Assembly (NCBI GenBank): GCA_003142355.1
Contig: PLMF01000068.1
Span: 2,426 to 12,506 of the forward strand
DNA: 10,081 nt
Direction of reading: 5' to 3'
From: Bryobacterales bacterium
GTDB lineage: Bacteria; Acidobacteriota; Terriglobia; Bryobacterales; Bryobacteraceae
This document shows positions 5,557 through 8,080 of the stretch, one piece after another. The first letter of the stretch is position 1. The number at the start of each line of letters is the position of its first letter. The notes beneath the pieces were generated by a model. The model had not been told where the DNA came from. It saw only the letters and a program-made list of their open reading frames with translations, and made no database searches. A program made the position numbers and the translations under genes.

Positions 5557-5668
5557 AATTATTCCACGCGCAACGCGGCGATGGGACGGCAATCAGGGGC
5601 GAGTGGTTGGTTGCTCTTGTCTAGTCTATTACTCTATGGACATGGTAAACTCAGGGTGAGAGGATACG

Positions 5669-6307
5669 ATGAGATCTCAGCGCCGAACCGCCGCATTGCC
5701 ATTTGCCGCGATGGGCAGGCATCCGGCCGGCAGCGCCCGGCGGGCTCTCGCGCAGGCATTCTTGAAGCGATCTGTGAAGATGCTGGAACGTGTGAGTTCC
5801 GCTGCGTCGTCCGAAGCCCTGGAGTCCGCCCTGTCCTCGCCGACGGATGTCGGCGGCCTGGCGTCCCTGCTGTCGGACCTTGCTCCGCTGGGTGTCGACC
5901 TCTCGGCCGTCGATCCGTTCGTGGAAGCGATGGCGCGGGGAGCGGCCATCAAGCGGGAGTTGTTGACCCGCGGCGGCGGAGGCCTCACGTCCAGCCAGGT
6001 GGCAAGCGCGCTAGGCATCACGCGGCAGGCAGTGGACAAGCGCCGCGGCCGGCGCGCTTTGCTGGCGGTACCGAACGGATCCGGCGAGTACGTGTATCCG
6101 GCCTGCCAGTTCACTGCGGACGGGGTGATCCCCGGCTTTGAGGAGGTTCTTCGGGCGTTCCGGATTCAAAATCCCTGGACCCAACTCTCGGTGTTGCTCG
6201 CACCCGCGCCGGCTCTGGGGGGCAAGACGATCCTCGAAGCGCTGAAATCCGGCGTTGTGGAAACGCCGGTCGCCATCGCCCGATCGTTTGGGGAACAGGC
6301 AGCGTAA
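5669..6307 (+). CDS. Xre/MbcA/ParS-type antitoxin of RES module 1
   Basis: This is the predicted antitoxin for the RES toxin directly downstream. The 212-residue protein is longer than most of its class. Residues 1-100 form an alanine-rich, mostly helical N-terminal region with no recognised motif. Residues 106-126 are a helix-turn-helix (LTSSQVASALGITRQAVDKR), followed by a wing-like segment with EYVYPACQF (140-148). Residues 169-211 fit the toxin-binding DUF2384-like domain: NPW at 168-170, ALGGKTILEALKSG at 182-195, then a helix ending in SFGEQ. The combination of a DNA-binding middle and a DUF2384-like end predicts autorepression plus toxin neutralisation. The ATG is well supported by GAGG at 5660-5663, five bases upstream. 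The toxin starts seven bases after the stop, so the two are surely cotranscribed. It is unrelated in its N-terminal part to the antitoxin at 7383-7814. Confidence 0.87.
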   Translation: MRSQRRTAALPFAAMGRHPAGSARRALAQAFLKRSVKMLERVSSAASSEALESALSSPTDVGGLASLLSDLAPLGVDLSAVDPFVEAMARGAAIKRELLTRGGGGLTSSQVASALGITRQAVDKRRGRRALLAVPNGSGEYVYPACQFTADGVIPGFEEVLRAFRIQNPWTQLSVLLAPAPALGGKTILEALKSGVVETPVAIARSFGEQAA

Positions 6308-6309
6308 GG
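6306..6309 (+). promoter_or_regulatory. Ribosome-binding site of RES toxin 1 (decides the start)
   Basis: AAGG overlaps the TAA stop of the antitoxin and lies five bases before the ATG at 6315. It supports that ATG over an in-frame ATG at 6255 inside the antitoxin gene. Confidence 0.7.
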
Positions 6310-6314
6310 CGCGC

Positions 6315-6902
6315 ATGACGCCGAAACCCGCCCTGCCGAAGCGCCTCCCGTCGATCCAGGTGAAAGCCGGCAGTCGCTGGATGCGAATTCACGCGCAAGG
6401 CAGGAATGCGCTTTGGTTCGGCCCTGGCTCCGGCCGCCCGCCGATTCATCGCTTCGACGATCCCGAGGGGCGATTCCGCGTATGCTATTTCGGGACCACT
6501 CTCGAGGTGTGCTTTGCCGAGACGTTTCTCCGCAATCCGCCGGTAAGAATTCTGGCGCTCGACGATCTCGCCGGGCGCTCCATCGCGACTGTGGAAGTGC
6601 GCCGCGATCTGCGACTGGTGCCGGTTCACGGTCCGAGTCTCGCCCGGTTGGGGGTGACGGCCGAACTGGCGAGCGGCATCGACTACAGGGCCTCGCGATT
6701 TTGGTCGCGTGCCCTGTGGGAGCACAGTGACGAGCCGGACGGAATCCTCTATCGATCTCGCCACGACGATTCGGCGCTCTCGGTGGCCGTGTACGACCGT
6801 GCGAAAGATGGCTTGGTTATCGTTGGGGATCGTTCCCTGTCTGAAGATGCTCAGCAGTTAGCGGGACTTCTGAGAAGATATGGTCTGGGGCTGACCAAGT
6901 AA
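6315..6902 (+). CDS. RES-domain toxin 1 (NAD-targeting)
   Basis: RES toxins consume NAD+ (hydrolysis or phosphorolysis in studied cases such as Pseudomonas Res and mycobacterial MbcT) or, in ParT, ADP-ribosylate a target; they are ADP-ribosyltransferase-fold proteins. The 195-residue product shows the named residues in order: Arg24 in SRWMRIH, Glu69 in CFAET, and Ser148 in LYRSRHD. It also has RFRVCYFGTTLEVCFAE (53-69), the usual strand-helix around the glutamate, and DLAGRSIATVEV (84-95). The sequence GILYRSRHDDSALSVAVY matches the long RES subtype. Start at 6315 was chosen from the AAGG site; the ATG at 6255 would give a 60-base overlap and an arginine-rich extension not expected in the family. 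Its gene ends 20 bases before the end of a second, convergent RES toxin gene. Confidence 0.9.
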   Translation: MTPKPALPKRLPSIQVKAGSRWMRIHAQGRNALWFGPGSGRPPIHRFDDPEGRFRVCYFGTTLEVCFAETFLRNPPVRILALDDLAGRSIATVEVRRDLRLVPVHGPSLARLGVTAELASGIDYRASRFWSRALWEHSDEPDGILYRSRHDDSALSVAVYDRAKDGLVIVGDRSLSEDAQQLAGLLRRYGLGLTK

Positions 6903-6922
6903 CGGGAATTCTGGGAATCAGG

Positions 6923-7399
6923 TTATGGCCATCTCCAAAGCCGTCGATCCCAGTACGCTGGCACGGGCTGGCTGGCACTGATGCGGTGGAAGTCGGGATG
7001 TTCCTGGTTGATCAGGACATTCCGCTCCACATGTGTCACCACGGAAGGCACCAGGAGCACCGGGGTGCGGCGTTCGTCATACCATCGGTCGCCGAACGAT
7101 CGAGCTGTTTCAAACGAGGGTGAATTCCACCGCGGCAGATCGGCTGGCGTGATTTCTTCGTTGGACAAGCCGGCCGGAATCTCGATCTCGACATAACCCT
7201 GGCTTTGCGGGATGCTGCCGGAGGCGTGGACCAGAATCTCCAATAAGGCGCCCGCATACGTTTCGGCGGCATAGATTACGCGCCGGCCGGGAGAATTCCA
7301 GCGGGCGCCGTGGAGCATGGCCCCACTCCCATCGAAGATGGGATGCCGCATATCGGCGATGCGGAACGCTCGCAGCAGGCCGCTACGCCGGAAGGCCAT
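6923..7399 (-). CDS. RES-domain toxin 2 (short subtype)
   Basis: This is a second RES toxin, predicted to deplete NAD+ or modify a target with it, neutralised by the antitoxin encoded just upstream on the minus strand. From the ATG at 7399 it has 158 residues, typical of the short RES subtype. Visible motifs are LRAFRIAD with Arg13, GARWNSPGRRVIYAAET (31-47), ALLEILVH with Glu54, VLLVPSVV with Ser119, and NVLINQEHPDF (127-137), followed by a WDRRLW end. It shares the fold signature but little linear sequence with toxin 1. The start overlaps the antitoxin stop by 17 bases, so translation is probably coupled; no separate ribosome-binding site is evident. A longer frame from 7480 adds an Arg-rich stretch that only reads the antitoxin gene out of frame and was rejected. 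Confidence 0.92.
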   Translation of the reverse strand: MAFRRSGLLRAFRIADMRHPIFDGSGAMLHGARWNSPGRRVIYAAETYAGALLEILVHASGSIPQSQGYVEIEIPAGLSNEEITPADLPRWNSPSFETARSFGDRWYDERRTPVLLVPSVVTHVERNVLINQEHPDFHRISASQPVPAYWDRRLWRWP

Positions 7400-7814
7400 A
7401 GACAATGCGGGCCATGACCTCCTCCGCCTGCCGCGCACCCAATTCGGTGAGCGCGGCATCGAGGGGTGTTTTGCCCCCAATCTCCGGATGAGGGGTCGTC
7501 AGAAAGCGCCGCGCCTGTTCGCGATCCTGCCAGACGTCTTCGGCCGTGGCAACCACCCGCGCCAGGCGCTCGGTCCGTTCACTTTCCGCGGGCGTCAGAC
7601 GGTCGCGCCGCCGTTTATACGTAGCCTCCGGAACGATCCGGTGCATCATGGCGCGCTGGCCGGCGGCGTCCGGGAAGACGCGCCGCGCCACGTTGCGAAG
7701 GGTGGCCTTGGGCAGGCCGCGCTCGACGGCGTCATTCAGTTCCAGGATGGACGTGACGGGCCTGCCCAAAACGTGGCGACCTCCGAGGACTTCTCCAATA
7801 TGACGTGGCTCCAT
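7383..7814 (-). CDS. ParS/Xre-type DUF2384 antitoxin of RES module 2
   Basis: The 143-residue protein follows the standard Xre/MbcA/ParS antitoxin pattern end to end. VLGGRHVLGRPVTS (9-22) leads into a four-helix Xre-like part containing GLPKATL (33-39), RIVPEATYKRR (59-69) and the LTPAESERTERLARVVATAE-type helix (73-92). The toxin-binding domain contains DREQARRFLTTP (97-108), GGKTPLDAAL (113-122) and a final helix ending in RIVYGLPA. The C-terminal tail of such proteins plugs the toxin active site. Its gene overlaps the RES toxin 2 start by 17 bases. No ribosome-binding site is visible before the ATG, and a TATGAT -10-like hexamer lies only eight bases upstream, so a leaderless mRNA is possible. 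An inverted repeat overlaps that promoter. Confidence 0.92.
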   Translation of the reverse strand: MEPRHIGEVLGGRHVLGRPVTSILELNDAVERGLPKATLRNVARRVFPDAAGQRAMMHRIVPEATYKRRRDRLTPAESERTERLARVVATAEDVWQDREQARRFLTTPHPEIGGKTPLDAALTELGARQAEEVMARIVYGLPA

Positions 7815-7817
7815 TCG

Positions 7818-7853
7818 GTATCATCATACACTATGAAACGGATCAGATGATAC
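7818..7853 (-). promoter_or_regulatory. Promoter/operator of RES module 2
   Basis: GTATCATC at 7818-7825 and GATGATAC at 7846-7853 are perfect 8-base inverted arms 20 bases apart. The left arm overlaps a -10-like TATGAT on the minus strand (plus bases 7823-7828), whose expected transcription start lies close to the antitoxin ATG at 7814. A second small symmetry, GTAT-CATC-ATAC, spans 7818-7829. No good -35 is seen. This arrangement fits binding of an antitoxin dimer over its own promoter. Confidence 0.55.
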
Positions 7854-7863
7854 TAGAGCCGTT

Positions 7864-7953
7864 TGTGGGGCAGGTTGGTAACCTGCGGGCCGATTGGAAA
7901 TCGGCCCGCGCGGCGATTGCCAATCGCCGCGCCGGATGCCATCCGGCCCCACA
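7864..7953. repeat. 90-base multi-hairpin element (four adjacent hairpins in an outer stem)
   Basis: An outer stem TGTGGGG (7864-7870) pairs with CCCCACA (7947-7953). Inside it are four perfect hairpins laid end to end, each with a three-base loop. Hairpin 1 is GCAGGTT/AACCTGC (7870-7886, loop GGT). Hairpin 2 is GGGCCGATT/AATCGGCCC (7887-7907, loop GGA). Hairpin 3 is an 11-base stem GCGCGGCGATT/AATCGCCGCGC (7908-7932, loop GCC). Hairpin 4 is GCCGGAT/ATCCGGC (7931-7947, loop GCC), sharing end bases with its neighbours. Practically no base is unpaired. No T-tract follows on either strand, so it is not a standard intrinsic terminator. Candidates are a REP-like dispersed repeat mobilised by a transposase in trans, a structured RNA at the 3' end of the permease transcript, or a DNA cruciform. 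It lies between the permease gene and RES module 2. Confidence 0.85.
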
Positions 7954-7958
7954 TGAAT

Positions 7959-8057
7959 CTACTCCGGCAACGGCCGGTCCTTGATCTCCGGCGCAAATGG
8001 CAGAGCCGCCAAGCCAACCAGGAATAGCAGGCACATGGCGGCGCCTGCATAACGCAT
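7959..8057 (-). pseudogene. Likely C-terminal remnant of an MFS transporter
   Basis: From the ATG at 8057 a 32-codon frame encodes one hydrophobic helix (AAMCLLFLVGLAALPFAP) followed by EIKDRPLPE and TAG at 7959-7961. Many major-facilitator sugar-type transporters end in just this way, with a last membrane helix followed by APETKGKPLPE or similar. The frame stays open a little upstream (GELAP precedes the ATG) but then runs into the end of the permease gene. There is no ribosome-binding site. The simplest reading is that the rest of a transporter gene was lost by rearrangement next to the permease gene. A genuine 32-residue membrane microprotein is the alternative. Confidence 0.45.
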
Positions 8058-8080
8058 GGGCGCTAGTTCGCCGGCCAGCG

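What the first reader, a model, noticed from the sequence alone, without database searches (positions are those of the whole stretch)
7864..7953. Fully tiled multi-hairpin element: four perfect hairpins inside an outer stem
Ninety consecutive bases are almost entirely used by five perfect stems (7, 7, 9, 11 and 7 pairs), each inner hairpin capped by a three-base loop and starting where the previous one ends. Chance cannot explain it. The loops (GGT, GGA, GCC, GCC) and stem sequences differ, so this is not a simple tandem repeat; selection or the copying process preserves pairing rather than sequence. It could be a member of a dispersed palindromic repeat family (REP/BIME-like), a structured 3' UTR RNA of the permease transcript, or a cruciform-forming recombination site. 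Its place beside a gene remnant and a toxin module suggests a role in, or a mark of, rearrangement.
Basis: partly seen in the sequence, partly recalled or inferred. Interest (0 to 1): 0.75.

Follow-up and report, generated by a model that had tools for sequence, protein, structure and literature searches.

The report
Four-hairpin mobile repeat, REPIN-type
The 90-base run of hairpins is one copy of a repeat scattered through soil acidobacteria; it looks like the two ends of a small mobile element, with the enzyme gene that normally sits between them left out, and it is a little-described two-hairpin version of a known repeat type.

Summary
In detail: 7864-7953 holds four perfect 3-base-loop hairpins, end to end, inside a TGTGGGG/CCCCACA stem. 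It is one copy of a dispersed family. The REP/BIME guess is supported; the RNA and rearrangement guesses are not. Strict half-unit matches occur in 54 of 200 genomes of the order, up to 290 in one, none for the reversed pattern. Each end is GT[AG]G plus two hairpins. Such ends bracket Y1/RAYT transposase genes: 20 of 51 class-2-type cores have tagged hairpins on both sides, 12 of them two at each; controls 0 of 672. RAYTs with 7-bp GCAGG[TCG]T stems form one clade, support 94/87. The closest relative found lacks the element at the matching site but has a copy elsewhere with 55 identical bases. Stems covary mainly by two-sided Watson-Crick changes, as expected of DNA hairpins. Best reading: a RAYT-less, non-autonomous REPIN-like element with two hairpins per end, moved in trans. 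Movement itself is inferred, and no RAYT match was found in that closest relative.

The parts
7857..7863 (+). AGCCGTT, between the shared left flank and the outer stem; the empty site in G190 has other bases (GGGG) there. Perhaps a 5' tail that travels with the element (tentative)
   Evidence: compared by eye; similar [CT]CGTTT before GTGG in some G028 copies
7864..7870 (+). left arm of outer stem TGTGGGG, with the GT[AG]G-type tag GTGG at 7865-7868
7870..7886 (+). hairpin H1, GCAGGTT-GGT-AACCTGC (outer hairpin of left end)
7885..7909 (+). hairpin H2, 11 bp, loop GGA (inner hairpin of left end)
7908..7932 (+). hairpin H3, 11 bp, loop GCC (inner hairpin of right end); no spacer between H2 and H3
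7931..7947 (+). hairpin H4, GCCGGAT-GCC-ATCCGGC (outer hairpin of right end)
7947..7953 (+). right arm of outer stem CCCCACA, with CCAC (inverted GTGG tag) at 7949-7952
7383..7814 (-). neighbour: Xre/MbcA/ParS-type antitoxin gene, reading away from the element
6923..7480 (-). neighbour: RES-domain toxin gene of the same RES/Xre pair
7818..7853 (.). inverted repeat GTATCATC/GATGATAC before the antitoxin gene; in most relatives that keep this gene pair the similarity ends at about 7851-7856 (operator or promoter is inferred)
7960..8060 (.). right flank shared with G190 at 82% identity; seems to be the 3' part of a gene that continues in G190 (transporter-like by eye, not tested)

Best explanation
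It is a non-autonomous mobile repeat of the REP/REPIN kind, in what is most likely a Bryobacterales (Acidobacteriota) genome. Left end: GTGG + H1 + H2; right end: H3 + H4 + CCAC, here fused without spacer. Relatives carry ends of the same build around a Y1 (RAYT) transposase gene, so this copy is the RAYT-less form. Shown: family, ends, RAYT bracketing in part of the RAYT genes, clade-specific end sequences, occupied and empty sites, two-sided Watson-Crick changes. Inferred: a cognate RAYT acting in trans cuts the tagged hairpins in single-stranded DNA and pastes the element elsewhere, so that pairing more than sequence is kept.
For: Copies: matches in 54 of 200 genomes of the order, up to 150+140, reversed pattern 0. 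Ends: a second hairpin follows H1 in 101 of 117 distinct acidobacterial half-units, shuffled 85 of 2340. RAYT bracketing: of 51 class-2-type cores 20 have GT[AG]G hairpins on both sides, 12 of these two hairpins at each, 29 at least on one side; control positions 0 of 672 with both. Counting from that same output only the genes of G001-G005, found through PF01797 and not through the RAYT alignment, it is 10 of 25. Tree: the 7 rows with a 7-bp GCAGG[TCG]T stem form one clade, 94/87; GCAGCCA, GCACGCA and GCAGGCCC ends lie elsewhere. Protein: best PDB match of the RAYT profile is TnpA_REP 4er8; NCBIfam REP_Tyr_transpos is the best model. Mobility: empty site in G190, sister copy at another place of G190 with 55 identical bases; at G028:C259 the element is missing in 7 of 7 relatives looked at. 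Covariation: 48 two-sided changes vs 16.7 +/- 3.5 in shuffles. Extragenic: 71 of 96 clusters outside predicted genes although 81% of bases are coding.
Against: No genome of the window is held, so its own RAYT is unknown. The nearest relative found, G190, has copies but no match to the RAYT alignment. In G028, with 76 model matches over both strands, three of five RAYT matches were looked at and none has GCAGG[TCG]T ends. 22 of 51 cores show no tagged hairpin. About half the cores were fetched with an alignment of three RAYTs chosen because they have such ends, which may raise the share. The three RAYTs score 78.5-79.9 bits, just under the REP_Tyr_transpos cut-off of 80. The clade support is just under the tool's starred level, and two L218 genes with similar 6-bp GCAGGC stems and 4-base loops lie outside it. 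Empty sites do not tell gain from loss; no target duplication is seen. Gene calls were home-made.
Confidence: 0.9

Rival explanations
1. A structured RNA (small RNA, 3' UTR stabiliser or terminator) selected for folding in the transcript.
For: Very stable predicted RNA fold, z -5.8; pairs covary. Extragenic clusters are rare between divergent genes (6 of 61, against 41 of 202 of all gaps of 60 bases or more), so they tend to lie behind a gene end; REP elements can act on transcripts once present (PMC8266576 introduction).
Against: Two-sided changes outnumber one-sided wobble changes 48 to 12 and non-Watson-Crick cells are 6 G-T, 3 A-C, 18 other of 707; no T run or terminator-like site; best Rfam match far under its cut-off. 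Avoiding divergent gaps also fits selection against insertion into promoters.
Confidence: 0.05
2. Templated hairpin correction alone: short palindromes grow and homogenise by slippage and template switching, without a transposase.
For: Changes are mostly Watson-Crick to Watson-Crick on both arms, as template switching would give.
Against: Does not explain spread to many sites with fixed GTGG tags, nor RAYT genes bracketed by matching ends. It may act on top of transposition.
Confidence: 0.03
3. A cruciform recombination or rearrangement site.
For: The window carries a relocated segment 5591-8080 that holds the element.
Against: The element is more than 100 bp from the nearer breakpoint, and G190 has the toxin-antitoxin pair and the right flank without it.
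Confidence: 0.02

Closest known systems
REP / BIME elements and REPINs with RAYT (TnpA_REP) transposases (PMC3116915: passages incl. part of the abstract; PMC8266576: abstract, introduction and one discussion section)
   Same: GT[AG]G tag before a hairpin, inverted pairs, extragenic, high copy, matching copies beside a Y1 HuH transposase gene; compensatory changes in the hairpin are reported for REPINs too
   Different: Two hairpins per end here, four in the compact form, instead of one REP hairpin per end; RAYT directly bracketed by the ends in many cases; found here in Acidobacteriota
TIRtrons and double palindromic TIRs (PMC3733652: section 16 and passages)
   Same: RAYT-like genes flanked by inverted repeats, some double palindromic; several are from Acidobacteria (Koribacter, Terriglobus, Acidobacterium, Granulicella); some also form repeat families; Pseudomonas has degenerate GTAG units joined to a second stem-loop
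   Different: The motif printed there for some TIRs, GGGGWSAS, does not fit GGGGCAGG; the figures with the sequences are not held, so identity could not be tested
Double-foot REPs of TnpA_Y1 subclass 2.4 (PMC6006769, passages)
   Same: GT[AG]G at one foot and its complement at the other
   Different: Described as one long hairpin; here four hairpins
Class 3 TnpA_Y1 and its ~600 repeats in Solibacter usitatus (PMC6006769: section 27 and passages)
   Same: Acidobacteria, high-copy hairpin repeats linked to a Y1 protein
   Different: Foot CnGA and Y motif ending in Q there; the three EQ-type genes met here (L228-L230) have no GT[AG]G hairpins beside them
IS200/IS605 insertion sequences
   Same: HuH/Y1 enzyme, hairpins at both ends
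   Different: The three RAYTs score 24-30 bits against the IS200 model cut-off of 55

Membership tests
REP element (GT[AG]G superfamily) | GT[AG]G tetranucleotide at the foot of a hairpin | tested here: met
   GTGG at 7865-7868 and inverted at 7949-7952, each before a 7-bp hairpin
REP element (GT[AG]G superfamily) | many copies per genome | tested here: met
   met in relatives: up to 290 strict matches in a genome, 25 model matches over both strands in G190; the window's own genome could not be counted
REP element (GT[AG]G superfamily) | mostly extragenic | tested here: met
   71 of 96 clusters outside predicted genes at 81% coding (home-made gene calls)
REPIN / BIME | two REPs in inverted orientation that can form one hairpin | tested here: met
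   45-base arms 78% complementary; lowest-energy fold pairs the two ends in a long stem
REPIN / BIME | linked to a cognate RAYT gene | tested here: inconclusive
   met in relatives: 20 of 51 cores tagged on both sides, clade-specific ends; own genome not held, none found in G190
REPIN / BIME | evidence of movement | tested here: inconclusive
   occupied/empty sites, window vs G190 and G028 vs 7 relatives; gain not told from loss, no excision reads
Class 3 TnpA_Y1 repeats (Solibacter type) | CnGA foot | tested here: not met
   the foot here is GTGG
TIRtron (Di Nocera 2013) | TIR sequence shared with the published ones | not testable with these tools
   figures not held; GGGGWSAS motif does not fit
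Rfam RNA families | match above gathering score | tested here: not met
   best at the element: CRISPR-DR29, 20.5 bits vs 39

The most novel reading that the evidence does not exclude
In these acidobacterial RAYT lineages the transposing unit is defined by architecture (tag plus two hairpins at each end) more than by sequence: the enzymes read folded single strands, and the stems drift by two-sided Watson-Crick changes, so that each RAYT lineage soon has its own private end sequences. The compact 88-base GTGG...CCAC form without spacer would be a distinct four-hairpin REPIN class.
Probability: 0.35. Interest if true: 0.65.

Novelty: new variant of a known kind. Interest (0 to 1): 0.5.

Why it matters
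RAYTs are regarded as domesticated transposases and have been studied mostly in gamma-proteobacteria (PMC8266576, introduction). Here one order of soil bacteria holds several RAYT lineages, often in one genome, many with their own double-hairpin ends, next to RAYT-less copies. These are natural matched and mismatched pairs for asking what a RAYT recognises (tag, stem sequence or shape) and how REPINs arise from RAYT-bearing elements.

Tried and rejected
A longer strict pattern gave nothing in genome contigs and was replaced by the half-unit pattern. The plasmid search gave only partial matches, at most 36% of the query, judged chance; the phage search none. Some of the 55 viral-contig hits look unrelated, for example tRNA-like GTGGGGCAGGATTCGAACCTGC (judged by eye); viral contigs were not used in the counts. 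An architecture parse with a faulty tag test was thrown away and redone. RNA, terminator and rearrangement readings were tested and set aside. A search in the genus of G190 held only G190 itself. In other phyla (33 of the 120 genome loci) 36 of 55 parses are single-hairpin pairs, 3 are lone two-hairpin ends and none is a pair of two-hairpin ends; a common origin was not tested.

Rows dropped or chosen. Searches count only genes in which my HuH...Y pattern was found, once per distinct core; loci without it (for example L219, L221, L222, L238-L240, L242, L252, L303, L312, L313, L319, L321 and part of L176-L200, L203) were not counted. The 12 genomes were taken because they hold the pattern, so their 12 of 12 matches prove nothing. 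Five of the eight genomes also gave copies to the model. The rows of A2 were picked by likeness to the window, 18 of the 20 loci fetched plus L264 and the window; L333 and L338 were left out, and L276 is the same site as L325. Related rows can exceed the shuffles without structure, as the tool warns. One search looked at 7 relatives out of the 24 genomes with matches. L309 has GCAGGTT ends but is too short for the tree.

Full report
Observation. The 90 bases 7864-7953 hold four perfect hairpins with 3-base loops, end to end, inside a perfect 7-bp outer stem. Neighbouring stems share one or two bases. Markov versions of the window gave no adjacent pair of such hairpins in 200 trials, and no dinucleotide shuffle folded as well. 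The lowest-energy RNA fold is not the four-hairpin one: it keeps H2 and H3 and pairs the two outer hairpin regions with each other.

Family. By their titles 87 of the 120 are Acidobacteriota, mostly Bryobacterales, and 33 other phyla, chiefly Planctomycetota and Verrucomicrobiota (not a random sample). In a sample of 200 genomes of the order, 54 have it, with up to 290 matches; the reversed pattern has none. Matches are not elements: an element with two such ends counts twice. Relatives of the window's compact form occur too: a covariance model of 20 copies matches in 8 of 8 chosen genomes, for example 76 times in G028 and 25 in G190 over both strands (most copies count twice, and five of the eight genomes gave rows to the model).

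Anatomy. In 117 distinct acidobacterial half-units 101 have a second hairpin at once after H1, against 85 of 2340 shuffled stretches; over all phyla, with a stricter test, 89 of 173 against 7 of 3700. Of 203 half-unit parses in 103 loci (both strands, so pairs count twice) 71 are lone two-hairpin ends, 54 lone one-hairpin ends, 32 belong to pairs of two-hairpin ends with a spacer and 6 to closed four-hairpin forms, that is the window, L264 and L276; the rest are mixed. Of 20 loci from G190 and G028, 13 measure 88 bases from GTGG to CCAC as in the window: 11 of 12 from G028, which had been picked among full-length model matches, and 2 of 8 from G190; one G028 locus was not parsed.

Link to a transposase. 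Y1_Tnp genes occur in 11 of the 12 genomes tried; the twelfth, G009, has 75 strict matches. Among 51 distinct class-2-type RAYT cores, 20 have tagged hairpins on both sides, 12 of them two hairpins at each end; 29 have them at least on one side and 22 on none; 672 overlapping control positions in 22 loci fetched for other reasons gave none with both sides and 27 with one side. Counting only G001-G005 in that output, where genes were found by PF01797, 10 of 25 have both. In the 12 genes with two hairpins at both ends, left and right ends agree in 66 of 72 apical H1 bases and 62 of 72 H2 bases. On a tree of 52 proteins the seven with a 7-bp GCAGG[TCG]T stem form one clade, 94/87, just under the starred level; other groups carry GCAGCCA, GCACGCA and GCAGGCCC ends, and two L218 genes with 6-bp GCAGGC stems lie outside the clade. 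Against the link, several genomes with copies show no RAYT with matching ends among those looked at, G190 and G028 among them. The assemblies are in many contigs and may lack genes.

Movement. G190, 90-92% identical to the window in the long matches, reads GATACTAGGGGGTGAGCTTACTCC where the window has GATACTAG, then AGCCGTT, the element, then TGAATCTACTCC. No target duplication is visible. A copy elsewhere in G190 (L354) is identical to window 7901-7955 over 55 bases; its inner left hairpin differs by a compensated pair and its H1 loop is longer. At G028:C259 a compact copy sits inside another GTGG-tagged inverted pair, and in 7 of 7 relatives looked at the conserved flanks are 58 bases apart or less. 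Gain was not told from loss.

DNA or RNA. In A2, 90.6% of cells pair, with 48 two-sided and 12 one-sided changes; shuffles give 16.7 +/- 3.5 two-sided, and sliding the partner drops pairing to 32-49%. In the larger set 680 of 707 apical cells are Watson-Crick, 6 G-T, 3 A-C, 18 other. The counts are small, but there is no sign that wobble is favoured, so the helix is probably kept as DNA. No Rfam family, promoter or terminator consensus applies. Extragenic clusters avoid gaps between divergent genes, 6 of 61 against 41 of 202, which fits either avoidance of promoters or a place behind gene ends.

Surroundings. The element lies beyond the conserved upstream region of a RES/Xre toxin-antitoxin pair. 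The window segment 5591-8080 is inserted relative to G190 and G178, where the sequence about 5590 abuts that about 8081; in G190 the pair lies elsewhere on the same contig. The element is inside this segment, not at its edges.

Known or new. Tag, palindrome, copy number, extragenic position and inverted pairing are met; RAYT link and movement are met or suggested only in relatives. Two hairpins per end depart from the usual single REP; the nearest printed precedents I saw are the double palindromic TIRs of PMC3733652 (section 16), whose sequences could not be read. Seven library searches, seen as listings with a few papers opened, showed no description of this family in Bryobacterales; the class 3 repeats of Solibacter in PMC6006769 have another foot. 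The library is partial, so this is no proof of novelty.

Noticed in passing
window 5591-8080: About 2.5 kb (a second RES-domain gene at 6255-6902, the RES/Xre pair, the element and a gene end) is inserted between 5590 and the FtsX/MacB-type permease gene relative to G190 and G178.
   Followed up: partly
L228, L229, L230 (G003): Three Y1 genes with a Y motif ending EQ, as in class 3, without GT[AG]G hairpins nearby; their own repeats were not looked for.
   Followed up: no
L377:1396-1619 (G028:C259): A compact four-hairpin element nested inside another GTGG-tagged inverted pair whose stem resembles the ends seen by eye beside RAYT L316.
   Followed up: partly
L361, L362, L363, L365, L366, L367 (G028): These copies share about 25 more bases on both sides, themselves partly complementary, so a longer repeat unit exists.
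   Followed up: no
G009 (L097), G010 (L105): Genomes labelled as other phyla carry many matches with the same GTGGGGCAGG tag, in the loci seen mostly as single-hairpin pairs; G009 has 75 matches and no Y1_Tnp hit.
   Followed up: no
L250:1149-1823: The open RAYT frame runs into its own 3' terminal hairpins, so the repeat encodes the last residues.
   Followed up: no
L373:1090-1317 (G190:C60): Two tagged four-hairpin elements of different sequence stand side by side.
   Followed up: no
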